Assembly (NCBI RefSeq): GCF_000376445.1
Contig: NZ_AQXI01000001.1
Span: 280,962-344,961, forward strand
Direction: 5' to 3'
DNA from: Haladaptatus paucihalophilus DX253
GTDB taxonomy: Archaea; Halobacteriota; Halobacteria; Halobacteriales; Haladaptataceae
DNA: 64,000 bases
Position numbers and translations under genes: made by a program. The notes below the pieces were generated by a model, which had not been told where the DNA came from, did not search any database, and was given only the letters and a program-made list of their open reading frames with translations. This document shows positions 41,745-47,320 of this stretch, one piece after another (position 1 is the first letter of the stretch; every line of letters starts with the position of its first letter).

Positions 41745-42629
41745 TTACGCGTTCGAGCGTTGCTCTTCGGAGGCCTCTTCGACCCACCCTTCGGCTCTGG
41801 TCTGGGGGACGTTCGCCGCCTCGGCAACGTCGTCCGGTTCGGCGGAAGCGAGGTCTTCGAGGGAGTCGATGCCCGCATTTTCGAGCCGTGAGCGGTAGGT
41901 ATCGCCCAACCCGTCGATCCGTTCGAGGTGCTGGCCGTCGCCCTCCGCTTCCATCTCCGCACCCTCTTCGCCCTCCGTTTCCTCCGCTTCCGCTTTGTCA
42001 CCGTCGTCGGACTCGTCGCTCGCTTCGCCCGTCTCGGCGATGGTTTCGAGACGGTCCTCGATAGCCGAGAGGCGGTCGTCGAGTTCGTGACGGAGTTCCT
42101 CGACGTCCTCGCTCGTCTCGTCGATTTCCACGGCGGATGAAGCGCCCGCCTCCGCTGTGGCGTCCGCGTCTCCCGCTTCCGTTTCGACCGCTTCCTCACT
42201 TTCCGAGAGCCGTCGTAAATGCTCCGCTCGGTCGATGACCTGGGACAGTTGGGATTGGACCGATTCGACGTGCGCTTGGAGGTGGTCGCGTCTCTCCTCG
42301 ACTTCTTCGCGGAGTTCGACTTCCTCCTCGGACATCGCTTCGGTCTGCTCGTCCAGGTTCTTCTCCAGTTCGGCGACTTCCCGCTCGAATCGGTCCAGTT
42401 GGTCGTCGAGTTCCTCGGGCGATTCGATTTCGGGTTCCGGAACGCCGAGCAGTTCCCGGTTCTCCTCGAAAACGTCCTCGGAGACGACGTACTCCAGGTG
42501 TTCGCTCGGGACGAACCCGACGACGTTCTTTCGGTCTTCGTCATCCATCAGAATGACGCCGCTGTCTACCGCTTTGTACCCTTTACAGTCGAGGGTGAGT
42601 CCGTTTTCACAGATTACTTTCATAGTCAT
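41745..42629 (-). CDS. Coiled-coil protein with C-terminal helix-hairpin-helix domain
   Basis: A 294-aa acidic protein. The N-terminal 70 residues (KVICENGLTLDCKGYKAVDS, VILMDDEDRKNVVGFVPSEH) look like a small beta domain with strand register of a haloarchaeal uncharacterised family. Residues about 75-150 form a long coiled coil, then an acidic linker, then a C-terminal HhH (HLERIDGLGDTYRSRLENAG, IDSLEDLASAEPDDVAEA), the kind that binds DNA without sequence preference or mediates subunit contacts. It might tether DNA or RNA. MTMKVI at 42629 or MKVI at 42623 can start it. Confidence 0.78.
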   Translation of the reverse strand: MTMKVICENGLTLDCKGYKAVDSGVILMDDEDRKNVVGFVPSEHLEYVVSEDVFEENRELLGVPEPEIESPEELDDQLDRFEREVAELEKNLDEQTEAMSEEEVELREEVEERRDHLQAHVESVQSQLSQVIDRAEHLRRLSESEEAVETEAGDADATAEAGASSAVEIDETSEDVEELRHELDDRLSAIEDRLETIAETGEASDESDDGDKAEAEETEGEEGAEMEAEGDGQHLERIDGLGDTYRSRLENAGIDSLEDLASAEPDDVAEAANVPQTRAEGWVEEASEEQRSNA

Positions 42630-42939
42630 TTTATGATGTGTTGTATCGTATCGATGTTGCTGACACCGGGAGAGCAACCGACGATATGGTATTGTGATGT
42701 CGTTTGGGTCGCTCCTCGGCGTCGGTACTCGACTGGTTGTCCCGTCGAACCGCGGTTCTCTTCCGGCAGTCCGTGCGGTGGACGCGACCACGCCGCCCGA
42801 CCCCCCTCGTTTCGTCGATAGCCCCAGTATCGACGGGCCCACCGCACACGGACGACCGTAAGTAGCATAAACACTACGACGGTGACGTGGTACGATGAAA
42901 CGGGATTCGCTCGGACGGACCGCTGCCGTCGCCGGGGTG
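42630..42939. other. Intergenic stretch with one hairpin
   Basis: No gene I can support. A perfect 7-bp hairpin GTCGATA-GCCCCAG-TATCGAC is at 42814-42834. A minus-strand frame of 82 codons ending in this region has poor amino-acid composition and no homologue that I recognise. The left end is AT-rich and would hold the promoter of the coiled-coil/HhH gene. Confidence 0.4.
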
Positions 42940-43773
42940 TCAGTCTCCCGTCCCGAGTTCCCGTTCAGTGAGCACCGAACGGATTGCCGTCTCGGTCGAG
43001 TCGTCGGTATCGCGCGACAGCACCGCGAGGACCGACTCGACCAGTTGGTCTTCCATCTCGGCTTCCCTGAAACTCATCGCCGGGTTCACGTCCACGGCCC
43101 AGTAGCCGTCGTCGGATTCGATGAAGTCAACGCCGATGGCTTGCGAGCCGGTGAGTTTCATCACGTCTCGAATCTGCTCGGCCAGCACGGGTTCGGGATC
43201 GATGAGGTCGATGTACTCCTTTTTCCCGCGTAGTTTCGACTTCGCACGGAGCACTCGGACGACGATTTCGTCGCCGGTGTCCACGGCGTAGTACTTGTGA
43301 TCGATGGGATCCGCCGGGACGAGTTCCTGATAGAAATCCCCCTCTCCGTTGAACTCGGGGTCGGGATGGAAGTGCCAGTCGAAGGATGTCTTCGCCACGT
43401 AATCACCCGATGGTTTTTCGAACGAGACCGGTGGCACCCGACAGCCCACGCGTTCGAGCACGCGATACCCGACGAGACGAGCGCCGAGAAGGACCGTTCT
43501 GTACCCGTTCCACGTCGCAATACCCGCCGATTCGGCCCGTTCCAGCGCGCGAAACGAATGCGGGTCCACCTTCTTGTTCATCAGCAGATCGAGATTCGAG
43601 ATAGTTTCCTCGGACAGCGCCGTTCCGGGCTCGAAGAAATCGACACGGATACCGCGATTGCGAAGTTCGTCTCCAACGACCGAGAACACGTCGTGTTCCT
43701 CGTTGCAAATCACCCCCACTCGCTGTCGAGACTGTTCCCCCCCTTGAGATCTCTTGTTAAGCGACACAGACAC
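42940..43773 (-). CDS. ATP-grasp (RimK-like) ligase A
   Basis: A 277-aa protein with a compact ATP-grasp fold. GDYVAKTSFDWHF has the ATP-binding Lys, FYQELVPAD the adenine loop, DHKYYAVDTGDEIVVRVLRA the central strands, and GVDFIESDDGYWAVDVNPAM the metal-binding Asp/Asn pair. The N-terminal part (VGVICNEEHDVFSVVGDELR) is the pre-ATP-grasp domain. Such enzymes join a carboxylate to an amine through an acyl phosphate. It is a clear paralogue of the gene at 45852. It is separated from the TIM-barrel gene by 206 AT-rich bases. Confidence 0.85.
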   Translation of the reverse strand: MSVSLNKRSQGGEQSRQRVGVICNEEHDVFSVVGDELRNRGIRVDFFEPGTALSEETISNLDLLMNKKVDPHSFRALERAESAGIATWNGYRTVLLGARLVGYRVLERVGCRVPPVSFEKPSGDYVAKTSFDWHFHPDPEFNGEGDFYQELVPADPIDHKYYAVDTGDEIVVRVLRAKSKLRGKKEYIDLIDPEPVLAEQIRDVMKLTGSQAIGVDFIESDDGYWAVDVNPAMSFREAEMEDQLVESVLAVLSRDTDDSTETAIRSVLTERELGTGD

Positions 43774-43979
43774 TCTCTAGCATAGGTGTACGTATAGAAA
43801 TTGTGTATGCCTACCACGCAATAGCTCTGTTATGTCAATATAATCTATATATGAGTATATAAATATGGTTCCCGGCGCACGCGTGCCGAACGGCATCGGA
43901 ACGGACGAGTGAAAGTTACGGACGGCCATACATCGCCTCCCAAACGCGACGTGTCGACGGACCGGCGGTGTGGAATCGC

Positions 43980-44747
43980 TTACGAACCACCCGAGACGCA
44001 CCGGCGGATATCGTCGAGCGACTTCATCTCGAAAACGTTGTATTCGGCACCGATTTCGTCCGCGACCGCCCGAAACTCCGGAAGGGGGTCGTGGTCGTCA
44101 CCCGTCCCGTCGTTGTCGTGGAGGTGAGCGACGTGAATACGGTCGCCGAATCGCTCGACGAACGCCTCGTAGGGAACCCCCGTAGCCTTCGCGTGCCCCA
44201 CGTCGAGCGTGAACCGGAAGTATTCCGAGTCGATACCGATGTCGTCGGCGAACGCCGCAATCCGGTCGGGGACCGCGGTGTTCCGTCGGCTCGATGGTTT
44301 ATCCCGTTGATTTTCGAGACAGACCGGCACTTCGACCTCCTCGGCGTAGTTGATACACTCGCGGATGGAGCGAACGGCTTGCTCGCGGCCGTGTTCCTGT
44401 GCGCGTTCCGGATACCGCGTCCGCACGGACCCGCCGTGAACCACGACGCCACCGGCCTCGATGTCCGCGGCCAAATCCAGCGACTCCTCGACGGCTTCGA
44501 CCGACGCCCGTCGAAGCCGTTCGTTCTGATTCCCGAGATTGCAGTCACGGTGGGGCATGTGGACGGTGTACGTCACCCCGTGGTCGTCCGCGATTCGCCG
44601 CAATCGGTCCGGGCTCGGCGGGTCCGAACGCACGTCCAAGTACCCCTTCCGTAGCTCGACGTGTGAAAGCCCCTGTTCCCCCAAGAACCGGACGAACTCC
44701 TCGACCGATTCATCGAACCGCACGTCGAGCGATGCACCGAACTGCAT
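43980..44747 (-). CDS. TIM-barrel sugar isomerase / AP-endonuclease-2-like protein
   Basis: A 255-aa xylose-isomerase-like barrel. VVVHGGSVRTRYPERA, VPVCLENQRD, FRFTLDVGHAKATG and VAHLHDNDGTGDDHDPLPEF give the metal ligands (Glu, Asp/His, Asp, His) of this superfamily, whose members isomerise or epimerise sugars or act on abasic DNA. The start at 44747 gives MQFGASLDVRF. It lies between ATP-grasp A and the ComB-like gene. An enzyme acting on a small hydroxy-acid or sugar phosphate is the simplest view. Confidence 0.83.
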   Translation of the reverse strand: MQFGASLDVRFDESVEEFVRFLGEQGLSHVELRKGYLDVRSDPPSPDRLRRIADDHGVTYTVHMPHRDCNLGNQNERLRRASVEAVEESLDLAADIEAGGVVVHGGSVRTRYPERAQEHGREQAVRSIRECINYAEEVEVPVCLENQRDKPSSRRNTAVPDRIAAFADDIGIDSEYFRFTLDVGHAKATGVPYEAFVERFGDRIHVAHLHDNDGTGDDHDPLPEFRAVADEIGAEYNVFEMKSLDDIRRCVSGGS

Positions 44748-44900
44748 AGTTGTACTCACCGCCGTAATACTGCGTCCGCAGAGCGTATAGCCGTTATTCA
44801 CACTCGGGAGACAGGCGAGGTTCCGGCGTCGAAACGACTACGATATCGACGGTGAAACGGCAGAAAAACAGTGAAACGGCAGAACTGACGGTAAAAACGA

Positions 44901-45665
44901 TCAGTCGGAGGTCGCGGGTTGGGCCGCCGTCTGCAGCGGCGACTCGTTCACGTCGACGAACTCGCCGCCGACGAGTTTTGGCACGACCGACCGACTGTTC
45001 ATGGCCTGCACGAACTCCTCGACGTCCCGGCGGCGAACCTCGTGTCGCTCGACGTAGTTCTCACCCTTCGCCACCTGCAGCATGTCCTGAAACATCTCGA
45101 CTTCGAAATCGAGGAGGGGATAGTCGTTCAGGTATCGACCGATCATGGCGGCACCGAGGTCGTCCTCCGTCGCCCACTCGCCCTTCGACCCCGCACTGAC
45201 GAGATACGTCTTCTCGTCGTCGGGGAGGTGACGAGCCAGCTCCGCCGCGTTCGTCGTGGACCCGATGTAGATGTCGACGTCATCGTCGCCGAGTTCTTGG
45301 AGGTTGGATATCGCACGCCCGCCATTCGAGGAGGTCAAACTCGTGGGACGCCCCGTTACGTCCACCGACTGCACGTAGCTCGGGGAATTGTAGAAGTCGT
45401 ACCCGTCCTCGGGTTCGAACGCCTCGGTGCGACCGCCACCGATTTTCGCGTCGGCGTTGTCCGACTGGTACTCGAACTCCAGTCCACGTTCTTCGGGGAC
45501 GTGGACGGACTGGGCACCCGCGGCCAGCAACTCGACGACGGTGGTCGAGAAGAACATGACGTCGATGATGACGTAGTTGCCGGGAGCGGGTTCCGTTGGC
45601 AGGTCCTCGCATCGTCGGATGTGGTCCCCATCGAAGTCGATGGAGAGTTGGTTCGTATTTTGCAT
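44901..45665 (-). CDS. ComB-like 2-phosphosulfolactate phosphatase family protein
   Basis: A 254-aa protein with the ComB fold. VIIDVMFFSTTVVELLAAGA, LEFEYQSDNADAKIGGGRTE, TSLTSSNGGRAISNL and IYIGSTTNAAELARHL are recognisable family segments. ComB hydrolyses 2-phosphosulfolactate in coenzyme M synthesis, but haloarchaea do not make CoM and no ComA/ComC-like genes are visible here, so the substrate may differ. It reads toward the TIM-barrel gene. It is divergent from ATP-grasp B, with an inverted repeat in between. Confidence 0.82.
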   Translation of the reverse strand: MQNTNQLSIDFDGDHIRRCEDLPTEPAPGNYVIIDVMFFSTTVVELLAAGAQSVHVPEERGLEFEYQSDNADAKIGGGRTEAFEPEDGYDFYNSPSYVQSVDVTGRPTSLTSSNGGRAISNLQELGDDDVDIYIGSTTNAAELARHLPDDEKTYLVSAGSKGEWATEDDLGAAMIGRYLNDYPLLDFEVEMFQDMLQVAKGENYVERHEVRRRDVEEFVQAMNSRSVVPKLVGGEFVDVNESPLQTAAQPATSD

Positions 45666-45744
45666 AGAGTATCTGGAGTGTCCGAATAGGAACGTGCAAT
45701 GATTGCGTATGCAGGTAGTTTAACGCCTATCTAGGTAGAAAAGC

Positions 45745-45767
45745 GCTCTGTAATATCTCTACAGAGC
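45745..45767. promoter_or_regulatory. Perfect 8-7-8 inverted repeat in the divergent promoter region
   Basis: GCTCTGTA (45745-45752) and TACAGAGC (45760-45767) form a perfect inverted repeat with a 7-bp spacer. It lies between the ComB-like gene (minus, TATA-like TTAAAC near 45720) and ATP-grasp B (plus, TATA-like CATATACG at 45808-45815). A second inverted pair TTGCCACG/CGTGGCAA flanks the plus-strand TATA (about 45796-45842). Likely operators; the regulator is not in the window in obvious form. Confidence 0.55.
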
Positions 45768-45851
45768 ACTATATAGTCAATCACGGTGGGTGCCTGTTGC
45801 CACGAAGACATATACGAACACGGGTGGTACTCCGTGGCAAGGTGATTCACC

Positions 45852-46589
45852 ATGGGGGATGAAGCCACCGGCGACGAACGTATCGGAATTATCTGCGATC
45901 CGAACCATCAAGTGTTCGGCGTCGTCGCCGAAACCTTACGAAAGCGAGGGTACGACGTCGAGTTTTTGGAACCGGGTGTGGAGCAGCCACGCGACCGCCT
46001 CGACCGACTGACCATGCTCGTCAACAAGAAGGCGCGGTGGGAGTCGCTCGACGCGCTCGAATACGCCGAACGGAACGGAATCAAGACGTGGAACGGCTAC
46101 GTGGCCTCCCTGCTGTTGTTCAATCGCGTATCCCAACTCGGCTGTCTCGCCGCCGCCGGATTTCGTATCCCGTCAATTCTGACCGAACCGCCGGACGGCG
46201 ACTACGTGGCGAAGGGGTTCATCGACATCGGCGACGACCCCGTGGCGAACGGGACCGGGGATTTCTATCAGCGACTCCTCGACGCCGACGGGCCGGACCA
46301 CAAGTACTACGCCGTCCACGACGGCAACGAAACCCACACGGCGGTCGTGCGGTTCGACTCGAAGCTCCACGGCGAGCGCGAACGCCTCGGTCCCGGAACC
46401 ATCGACACCGACGTGGCCGTCAGAATCGAACGACTGCTCGATTTTCTCGGTGCACGCGCGCTCGGCGTCGACGTGATTCGGGTGGACGACCGCTGGGTCG
46501 CGGTCGACAGCAATCCGGCGACGAGTTTCAAACACACCGGCCTCGAAACCCCGCTCGCGGACTCCATCGAGGACGCGTTGCGGGGCTGA
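45852..46589 (+). CDS. ATP-grasp (RimK-like) ligase B
   Basis: A 245-aa paralogue of the protein at 42940. Shared segments are GIICDPNHQVFGVVAETLRK, LVNKKARWESLDALEYAERN, IKTWNGYVASLLL, GDYVAKGFID, DHKYYAVHDGNET and GVDVIRVDDRWVAVDSNPAT. It is shorter and lacks the C-terminal Glu-rich tail. The active-site Lys and the Asp/Asn metal pair are kept, so it is probably an active ligase. It begins 187 bases from the divergent ComB-like gene. Confidence 0.84.
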   Translation: MGDEATGDERIGIICDPNHQVFGVVAETLRKRGYDVEFLEPGVEQPRDRLDRLTMLVNKKARWESLDALEYAERNGIKTWNGYVASLLLFNRVSQLGCLAAAGFRIPSILTEPPDGDYVAKGFIDIGDDPVANGTGDFYQRLLDADGPDHKYYAVHDGNETHTAVVRFDSKLHGERERLGPGTIDTDVAVRIERLLDFLGARALGVDVIRVDDRWVAVDSNPATSFKHTGLETPLADSIEDALRG

Positions 46590-46627: not shown

Positions 46628-47320
46628 CTACTTCGGCGTCGCAAGCATCGGGCGTACGAACTTCTCCGGCGGCCGTTCCTTGTGGGCGCGGGCGGGTTCG
46701 ACGCGTATCGTTCGGTCGCGGCGAACGTCGTATGCCGTCAGCGCGCCCCCGTAGACGCAACCGGTGTCGAGGCCGACCGCGGCGTCCTCGACGAACGGCC
46801 GTTCGAGCACCGTGTGGCCGAAGAACACCCGATCGTCTCCCGAGTAGCGTTCCCACCAGAACGGGCGGCCGTCGTCGCCGAGCGACTCCATGTTCTGTAA
46901 GTCGTCCACGGTATGCTCGCCGAGCGGCTTCCGCGGGTCGATGCCCCCGTGGACCACGAGCGCGTTCTCCCACGTGATGGCGACCGGAAGCGAAAAGAGC
47001 CAGCGGAGGTCCGCCTCGGTCAGGTCCGGCGCGACCCGTCGGCCACGGAGCAGTTTCTCCTCGTTGTTCCCTCGAACGGAGAGCATGTTGTCCGACGAGC
47101 GGACGAGTTCGACGACGCCGTGACTGTCCGGTCCGCGTCGAACGAGGTCCCCGACGAAGACGAGAAGGTCGTCGTCGCTCGGCGCGAGTTTCTCGATGAG
47201 TCGGTCGAGCGTCTTTCGGCACCCGTGGACGTCGCCGACGACGTACACGTTGTTCCAGTCGGCGAGGTCGATGGCGCGGTGCTGTGCCGAGATACTCCGA
47301 TTAAACGGGGCCGAGTTCAT
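46628..47320 (-). CDS. Metallophosphoesterase (Ser/Thr phosphatase / Ap4A hydrolase-like)
   Basis: A 230-aa calcineurin-fold phosphatase. GDVHG, FVGDLVRRGPDS, GNNEEKLL and VVHGGIDPRKPL are the four metal-binding motifs, and VFFGHTVLERP the last His. The order and spacing match PrpE/ApaH-type and PPP-type enzymes. It may dephosphorylate proteins or dinucleotides. It is convergent with ATP-grasp B with a 38-base gap. Confidence 0.87.
   Translation of the reverse strand: MNSAPFNRSISAQHRAIDLADWNNVYVVGDVHGCRKTLDRLIEKLAPSDDDLLVFVGDLVRRGPDSHGVVELVRSSDNMLSVRGNNEEKLLRGRRVAPDLTEADLRWLFSLPVAITWENALVVHGGIDPRKPLGEHTVDDLQNMESLGDDGRPFWWERYSGDDRVFFGHTVLERPFVEDAAVGLDTGCVYGGALTAYDVRRDRTIRVEPARAHKERPPEKFVRPMLATPK

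What the first reader, a model, noticed from the sequence alone, without database searches (positions are those of the whole stretch)
42940..46589. ATP-grasp / TIM-barrel / ComB-like gene group that may make an unknown small molecule
Two paralogous RimK-like ligases bracket a xylose-isomerase-like barrel and a ComB-type phosphatase. ComB belongs to coenzyme M synthesis, which haloarchaea lack, and no ComA/ComC-like genes are seen here. A consistent reading is: an isomerase makes or converts a phosphorylated hydroxy acid, ComB-like removes the phosphate, and the two ligases join it to amines or amino acids. The product could be a sulfonated solute, a cofactor or a protein tag. All reactions are inferred from fold.
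Basis: partly seen in the sequence, partly recalled or inferred. Interest (0 to 1): 0.78.

Follow-up and report, generated by a model that had tools for sequence, protein, structure and literature searches.

The report
Haloarchaeal five-gene phosphoester gene cluster
A small set of genes that travels together in several salt-loving archaea looks like an unstudied pathway that adds and removes phosphate groups on an unknown small molecule, rather than the coenzyme-making step its database label suggests.

Summary
The four genes are there and their linkage is real. Two further loci keep only C plus one ATP-grasp.

The proposed chemistry changes. The sister clade of B lies within about 4 kb of phnJ in 15 of 15 haloarchaeal C-P lyase genomes, where PhnP, a cyclic phosphodiesterase, is missing. 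Nine positions that I match to endonuclease IV metal ligands are invariant in 13 of 13 B sequences. C falls below every ComB equivalog cut-off and lacks canonical ComB's arginine. Its relatives end pst (phosphate uptake) operons, or sit with an ECF transporter plus either a B-type barrel or a PHP hydrolase, never both. A and D have the ATP-grasp fold but D-x-N and Lys motifs like the inositol pyrophosphate kinase PPIP5K2, where ligases have E-x-N and Arg.

Best reading: a phosphorylation and dephosphorylation pathway for an unidentified phosphoester, tied to phosphorus metabolism. Whether A and D are kinases or ligases is unproven.

The parts
42940..43773 (-). A: ATP-grasp protein, 277 aa; orthologue of the first ATP-grasp gene in L188 and L220
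   Evidence: A clade W+L188+L220 with support 100/98; model pLDDT 87.8 with ATP-grasp fold; D-x-N and Lys motifs
43980..44801 (-). B: AP_endonuc_2 TIM barrel, predicted trinuclear-metal phosphodiesterase; the conserved N-terminus suggests the true start is the ATG near 44747
   Evidence: PF01261 97.4 bits; CbiR 87.6 bits, cut-off 105; nine ligand candidates invariant in 13 of 13; member of the ComB-linked clade, 100/100
44901..45665 (-). C: ComB-family (PF04029) protein, predicted phosphatase of altered specificity
   Evidence: PF04029 80.5 bits; below all ComB equivalog cut-offs; canonical Arg replaced; grouped with ATP-grasp-linked and pst-linked ComBs, 81/91
45852..46589 (+). D: ATP-grasp protein, 245 aa, paralogue of A, divergent from C; the D-type gene is the one kept with ComB in all five ATP-grasp loci
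   Evidence: D clade W+L188+L220+L187 100/99, with L190 94/84
46628..47320 (-).
   Evidence: PF00149 62 bits; next to the group in L188 and L220, 58-59% identical

Best explanation
The five genes encode a small pathway that adds and removes phosphate on an unidentified polyol- or sugar-acid-like metabolite, tied to phosphorus metabolism. C is a ComB-fold phosphatase with changed specificity that takes a terminal phosphate off. B is an endonuclease-IV-type, probably three-metal phosphodiesterase that opens a phosphodiester (perhaps a cyclic one) to the monoester that C then hydrolyses. E is an additional metallophosphoesterase. A and D are ATP-grasp enzymes acting on the same metabolite, more likely as kinases than as carboxylate-amine ligases. 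The same B/C hydrolysis pair is used with an ECF importer (instead of ATP-grasps) in other haloarchaea, so one version takes the phosphoester up and the other makes it. SHOWN: gene content, co-occurrence, orthology, residue conservation. INFERRED: every reaction, the order of steps, the link to phosphate supply. UNKNOWN: the substrate.
For: Linkage: E-A-D-C-B in window, L188 and L220; C plus D-type ATP-grasp in L187 and L190; A and D each form their own orthologous clade. Phosphorus link of B: 15 of 15 PhnJ genomes among 195 carry a strong B relative within about 4 kb of phnJ, and 0 of those 15 have a PhnP match over the family cut-off. Phosphorus link of C: in the four ComB genomes of one genus (L032-L035) it follows PhoU-type genes of a pst operon, and these ComBs group with the ATP-grasp-linked ones (81/91). 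B/PHP exchange: of 26 named loci (of 36) with the ECF S component, 9 have a TIM, 15 a PHP, 2 neither, 0 both; all 13 S-component genomes among 195 have ComB. Metal ligands of B. A/D motifs: profile alignment puts D-x-N and Lys of A/D on D-x-N and Lys of PPIP5K2, where PsnB and LysX have E-x-N and Arg; D-x-N invariant in the 7 cluster proteins aligned and kept in L187. Exchange of transporter for ATP-grasps: the S component is absent from 4 of 4 ATP-grasp genomes and from G000, and present in 4 of 4 ECF genomes tested.
Against: No biochemistry, no expression data. The window genome has neither phnJ nor the ECF S component, so the phosphorus link is carried by relatives. B is not always linked to phosphorus genes: Salinigranum has two copies with no such neighbour recognised, and one of 23 strong B genomes (G003) has neither phnJ nor ComB nor the S component. 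The L187 genome has C and D but no B, so B is not essential. By overall fold A is slightly closer to LysX/RimK (Z 20.8-20.5) than to PPIP5K2 (19.5) or ITPK1 (19.1); these differ by under 2 and do not decide. The best sequence match of the A/D profile in the PDB is the ligase PsnB (E=0.0016) ahead of PPIP5K2 (0.012). ECF transporters usually carry vitamins (recalled), which fits a phosphate-scavenging role poorly.
Confidence: 0.42

Rival explanations
1. Biosynthesis with ligases: C dephosphorylates a 2-phospho-hydroxy acid and the ATP-grasp pair joins the freed acid to amino acids or amines; B hydrolyses or isomerises a precursor.
For: Closest folds by Z are LysX and RimK; PsnB is the best PDB profile hit; weak rimK_fam match. 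ComB enzymes act on 2-hydroxycarboxylic acid phosphates (recalled), whose carboxylate suits a ligase. Two orthologous ATP-grasps of different type in each full locus would suit two sequential couplings.
Against: D-x-N instead of E-x-N and Lys instead of Arg at two aligned sites; both far below ligase family cut-offs; B looks like a phosphodiesterase; no gene for an amine partner or carrier protein was seen to recur among the loci (read by eye).
Confidence: 0.3
2. Cobamide or other cofactor salvage: the ECF transporter imports a phosphodiester-containing cofactor, B (CbiR-like) cuts its phosphodiester, C removes the phosphate; the ATP-grasp version remodels the pieces.
For: CbiR is the best curated match of B (87.6 bits, cut-off 105) and of its cluster orthologues; ECF transporters typically carry vitamins (recalled).
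Against: All are below the CbiR cut-off; the sister clade of B sits in C-P lyase operons, which have nothing to do with cobamides; PHP proteins take the place of B in other ECF loci; no cobamide gene was among the ten window genes scanned with Pfam.
Confidence: 0.12
3. True coenzyme-M-type step: C hydrolyses 2-phosphosulfolactate to sulfolactate in a haloarchaeal sulfonate pathway.
For: PF04029 membership; NSP and NGG motifs kept; some haloarchaea do carry ComA-like genes close to ComB.
Against: Canonical Arg lost while the two ComA-linked ComBs that could be aligned keep it; none of 36 named near-clade loci has a ComA hit within the fetched DNA; far below equivalog cut-offs.
Confidence: 0.08

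Closest known systems
ComB, 2-phosphosulfolactate phosphatase (PF04029; TIGR00298)
   Same: Fold family; D35, NSP, NG and ED motifs kept
   Different: Arg of the D-V-L-R-A-T motif replaced by F/H/Q/Y/S; 58.3 bits against a 175 cut-off; no ComA linkage in 36 named loci; found instead with TIM/PHP hydrolases, ECF, pst genes or ATP-grasps
Endonuclease IV / CbiR (AP endonuclease 2 superfamily)
   Same: All nine ligand candidates invariant; CbiR is the closest curated model
   Different: Below the CbiR cut-off; linked to ComB and, in a sister clade, to C-P lyase
PhnP / PhnPP, phosphodiesterases ending the C-P lyase pathway
   Same: The sister clade of B holds PhnP's place in 15 of 15 haloarchaeal C-P lyase genomes; a PHP protein alternates with B in ECF loci as PHP-type PhnPP (fold recalled) alternates with PhnP in phn pathways
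   Different: Different folds (TIM barrel against metallo-beta-lactamase); the window genome has no phnJ
RimK / LysX / ArgX ATP-grasp ligases
   Same: ATP-grasp fold, Z about 20
   Different: D-x-N and Lys where LysX and PsnB have E-x-N and Arg; far below family cut-offs
ITPK1 / PPIP5K (Vip1) ATP-grasp inositol phosphate kinases
   Same: ATP-grasp fold, Z 19-19.5; D-x-N and Lys shared with PPIP5K2; a kinase paired with a phosphatase, as PPIP5K has a fused phosphatase domain (PMC8024741, passage read)
   Different: No Pfam ITPK match for A or D; substrate unknown; no inositol phosphate reported from these organisms that I know of (recalled)

Membership tests
ComB (2-phosphosulfolactate phosphatase) | PF04029 domain over the curated cut-off | tested here: met
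   80.5 bits, cut-off 26.4
ComB (2-phosphosulfolactate phosphatase) | Equivalog score (TIGR00298 or PRK00886 models) | tested here: not met
   Best 58.3 bits against 175.05; all eight models listed are below cut-off
ComB (2-phosphosulfolactate phosphatase) | Arg in the D-V-L-R-A-T motif of the solved ComBs and of ComA-linked haloarchaeal ComBs | tested here: not met
   2yyv has VLRAT; window has VMFFS; L055 and L058 have ALRAS; the near-clade rows have no Arg there (L222 is partial and not read at this site)
ComB (2-phosphosulfolactate phosphatase) | Activity on 2-phosphosulfolactate | not testable with these tools
   Needs purified protein
RimK-type ATP-grasp ligase | ATP-grasp fold | tested here: met
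   pLDDT 87.8; LysX Z 20.8, rmsd 2.8, 230 aligned
RimK-type ATP-grasp ligase | rimK_fam score over cut-off | tested here: not met
   A 21.1 bits against 143.4; D no match
RimK-type ATP-grasp ligase | Glu-x-Asn metal motif and Arg as in PsnB and LysX | tested here: not met
   A/D have Asp-x-Asn and Lys; that these separate ligases from kinases in general is recalled
ITPK/PPIP5K ATP-grasp kinase | Asp-x-Asn and Lys at the aligned sites | tested here: met
   Alignment to PPIP5K2, E=0.012 for the profile
ITPK/PPIP5K ATP-grasp kinase | Match to the ITPK Pfam model PF05770 | tested here: inconclusive
   No match for A, D or five cluster relatives; a distant haloarchaeal relative matches at E=1.9e-4, 21.4 bits against 23
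ITPK/PPIP5K ATP-grasp kinase | Phosphotransfer to an inositol phosphate | not testable with these tools
   Needs purified protein
Endonuclease IV-type phosphodiesterase | Nine ligands of the three-metal site | tested here: met
   H81, H122, E163, D200, H203, H226, D235, H237, E258 invariant in 13 of 13; the first six positions align to M. tuberculosis End4, the last three are assigned by motif (recalled)
CbiR | Equivalog score NF041277 over cut-off | tested here: not met
   87.6 bits against 105; orthologues 76.7 and 77.9
PhnP-equivalent of C-P lyase | Sits in a phn operon | tested here: not met
   True for the sister clade in 15 of 15 PhnJ genomes; the window genome has no PhnJ

The most novel reading that the evidence does not exclude
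A haloarchaeal counterpart of eukaryotic inositol (pyro)phosphate metabolism: paired ATP-grasp kinases (A, D) and three phosphoesterases (B, C, E) build and break a polyphosphorylated small molecule that stores phosphate or reports phosphate status, with an alternative version that imports the phosphoester through an ECF transporter and takes it apart with ComB plus either an EndoIV-like or a PHP-type hydrolase.
Probability: 0.17. Interest if true: 0.87.

Novelty: new variant of a known kind. Interest (0 to 1): 0.6.

Why it matters
Two plasmid-borne relatives of this ComB clade are annotated '2-phosphosulfolactate phosphatase', and the partner barrel 'sugar phosphate isomerase/epimerase'. The evidence says both labels are probably wrong and that the two form one hydrolysis module. 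Its ECF version is present in four Haloferax species, a genus with good genetics, so it can be tested now. The same analysis offers a candidate for a known gap: archaeal C-P lyase operons are reported to lack phnNOP (PMC10574752, section read), and all 15 haloarchaeal C-P lyase genomes found among 195 carry a B-type barrel within about 4 kb of phnJ. If A and D are kinases, it would be an unrecognised phosphorylated-metabolite system in archaea.

Tried and rejected
Coenzyme M or sulfonate synthesis: rejected as the main reading. B as isomerase: set aside because of the nine conserved ligand candidates and the C-P lyase sister clade.

The first searches suggested A/D are unlinked to ComB: true for the 195-genome sample apart from the window, but overturned by the named-genome scan. 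The common A/D relatives elsewhere have no shared neighbours that I saw, except a group beside ProRS and fttA that has largely lost the D-x-N motif.

Fold of the ECF S component (collected): mean pLDDT 39, not used; no Pfam or NCBIfam match, so its substrate class is unknown. Deciding ligase against kinase by fold failed: Z values too close. PDB profile searches with the broad A/D alignment gave nothing at E 0.01 or better. Shared promoter motif: the window C-D gap holds an 8-bp inverted repeat; no comparable copy in L187, L188 or L220. Synteny in congeners through E: no other window gene near the E relatives. PhnP search: 15 of 15 PhnJ genomes have sub-threshold matches, but none over cut-off and none within 100 kb of phnJ.

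Literature: searches found no paper on this cluster or on a haloarchaeal TIM barrel in phn operons; only open-access papers are held. Read: passages of PMC1544339, PMC10897400, PMC7614388, PMC8024741, PMC10574752 (and its section 15), PMC8774927, PMC13373138 and PMC7733943; all others seen as listings only.

Limits of counts: the gene caller is home-made and made some antisense or missed calls (for example ComB in L033 and L050), so linkage counts rest mainly on tblastn and the genome search. The PHP count in the 195-genome set (7 of 13 S-component genomes) rests on that caller. In G007 ComB, at a contig end, and the TIM/ECF genes lie on different contigs. The ComB tree used 53 rows, window included, after dropping hits of 150 aa or less or with stops from 63 loci with hits; L058-L060 are not in it, nor L192, L193, L195, L197 and others. 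The B tree dropped hits under 180 aa, with stops, under 40% identity (except one paralogue) and duplicates. The A/D tree dropped rows of 150 aa or less or with stops. The two locus sets overlap in species (for example L198 and G140), so they are not independent. The chance estimate uses a rough gene density (37 genes per 195 genomes of 3.4 Mb).


Full report
WHAT IS THERE. The four ORFs exist at the stated places. C is PF04029 (80.5 bits, cut-off 26.4) and B is AP_endonuc_2 (97.4, cut-off 31.1). A and D are 43% identical paralogues with only weak sequence matches to ATP-grasp families, but the AlphaFold model of A (pLDDT 87.8) is clearly ATP-grasp: LysX Z 20.8, RimK 20.5, PPIP5K2 19.5, ITPK1 19.1. 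Next to D lies E, a calcineurin-like phosphoesterase. The genome is probably a Haladaptatus: handles described as 'same genus' have the contig coordinates of Haladaptatus plasmids.

IS THE GROUP REAL? In 195 genomes of the order, ComB relatives occur in 30, none of them one of the 8 congeners searched. In that sample no locus but the window's has ATP-grasp and ComB together. The named-genome scan with a ComB-clade alignment gave 36 loci. Of these, L188 (Haloarculaceae archaeon H-GB1-1) and L220 (Halobellus sp. Atlit-31R) have E, A, D, C and B together; L187 (Halorarius litoreus) and L190 (Salinigranum salinum) have a D-type ATP-grasp beside C. A-type proteins form one clade (100/98) and D-type another (100/99; with L190 94/84). 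By chance about 0.07 ATP-grasp genes were expected in the 65 loci searched, and 6 were seen at 4 loci. E relatives appear near ComB in only 2 of 36 named loci, exactly the two full clusters. So the unit is real and has five genes. Its smallest form is C plus a D-type ATP-grasp (5 of 5 loci, window included); A, B and E are present in 3 of 5. The L187 genome has no B at all, and the L190 genome has two B copies away from ComB.

WHAT B TELLS. Strong B relatives (E<1e-60) are in 23 of 195 genomes, the own genome included. PhnJ, the C-P lyase enzyme, is in 15 of 195, and all 15 are among the 23. Comparing coordinates, B lies 3-4 kb from phnJ in each. In the locus scanned gene by gene with Pfam (L130) it ends a phnGHIJ-KL-M operon, and the gene clusters of the other phn loci match. 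The remaining genomes are the six with ComB and ECF (G140, G134, G117, G150, G024, G007), the own genome and G003. E. coli PhnP opens 5-phosphoribosyl 1,2-cyclic phosphate (PMC10574752, passage read), and archaeal phn operons are reported to lack phnNOP (same review, section read). None of the 15 genomes has a PhnP match over cut-off; one of 14 control genomes does. The ComB-linked B proteins are a separate clade (16 rows, 100/100), so this shows chemistry by kinship, not the same substrate. Nine ligand candidates of the endonuclease IV three-metal site are invariant in 13 of 13 aligned proteins from both clades. CbiR, a proven phosphodiesterase of the superfamily (PMC7733943, passages read), is the closest curated model but its cut-off is not reached.

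WHAT C TELLS. In other haloarchaea this ComB clade sits with an ECF transporter: S component, fused ATPase, T component. The S component is in 13 of 195 genomes and all 13 have ComB. Of 26 named loci with the S component (of 36), 9 have a B-type TIM, 15 a PHP protein, 2 neither and none both. TIM and PHP thus look interchangeable, as PhnP and PhnPP are alternative routes after C-P lyase (PMC8774927, passages read; that PhnPP is a PHP protein is recalled). In the four ComB genomes of one genus, ComB follows PhoU-type genes of a pst phosphate-uptake operon (the pst and PhoU names were given by eye), and those ComBs group with the ATP-grasp-linked ones (81/91). Canonical ComB has Arg in D-V-L-R-A-T; the clade has lost it, while L055 and L058, with ComA-like neighbours, keep it. 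C is therefore probably a phosphatase of other specificity.

WHAT A AND D TELL. Profile alignment of the cluster ATP-grasps places their D-x-N on D-V-N of PPIP5K2 and their Lys (K-Y-Y-A-V) on Lys of PPIP5K2 (D-V-K-V-Y), where PsnB and LysX have E-x-N and Arg. D-x-N is kept in all seven cluster proteins aligned and in L187. This favours phosphotransfer, but the best single hit of that profile is the ligase PsnB (0.0016 against 0.012 for PPIP5K2), and fold scores do not decide. I put kinase slightly above ligase.

MECHANISM. Most likely: A/D phosphorylate a polyol- or acid-like metabolite; B opens a phosphodiester; C and E remove phosphate. The ECF version imports the phosphoester instead: the S component is absent from the four ATP-grasp genomes and from the own genome, and present in four of four ECF genomes tested. 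The exclusion is not absolute for ATP-grasps as a family: a degenerate group without the D-x-N motif occurs in ECF genomes such as G202 and G177. Every reaction is inferred; the substrate is unknown.

AGAINST. The own genome lacks phnJ and the S component. B can stand alone. C and D occur without B. Searches found no paper on this cluster; most papers of subscription journals are not held.

VERDICT. Observation confirmed and extended; interpretation partly supported. The families are known, the combination is not described in what I could search. It is a testable new variant of phosphoester metabolism.

Noticed in passing
L121-L134, L136 (phn operons); All 15 haloarchaeal C-P lyase genomes in a 195-genome sample carry an EndoIV-like TIM barrel 3-4 kb from phnJ and lack PhnP over cut-off: a candidate for the missing archaeal cyclic phosphodiesterase.
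   Followed up: partly
L055, L058, L059, L060: Four haloarchaeal genomes have a ComA-like gene (TIGR03849 237 bits in L055, cut-off 280) close to a distant ComB; in three of them a glyoxalase-like gene lies between. Possible real sulfolactate-type synthesis in haloarchaea.
   Followed up: no
L032-L035: In one genus ComB follows PhoU and PhoU-AbrB type genes of a pst operon; in L032 and L034 an ORF next to ComB looks like an inositol-monophosphatase family protein (by eye, not scanned).
   Followed up: partly
L036:9548-10408 and relatives: ECF S component of unknown family (no Pfam or NCBIfam match), always with this ComB in 13 of 13 genomes; substrate unknown.
   Followed up: partly
L158-L171: A degenerate branch of the A/D ATP-grasp family that has largely lost the D-x-N motif sits beside prolyl-tRNA synthetase and fttA in two genera.
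   Followed up: no
L239-L242: Another haloarchaeal ATP-grasp family of about 265 aa with D-V-N motifs; one member nearly reaches the ITPK Pfam model (21.4 bits, cut-off 23).
   Followed up: no
window 45745-45767: Inverted repeat GCTCTGTA-N7-TACAGAGC in the C-D gap, a possible operator; no comparable repeat in the sister loci.
   Followed up: partly
window 41745-42842 and L188 around 2025-2460: The N-terminal part of the HHH-domain protein beside A resembles a small ORF between E and A in L188; L220 has no room for it between E and A (by eye).
   Followed up: no
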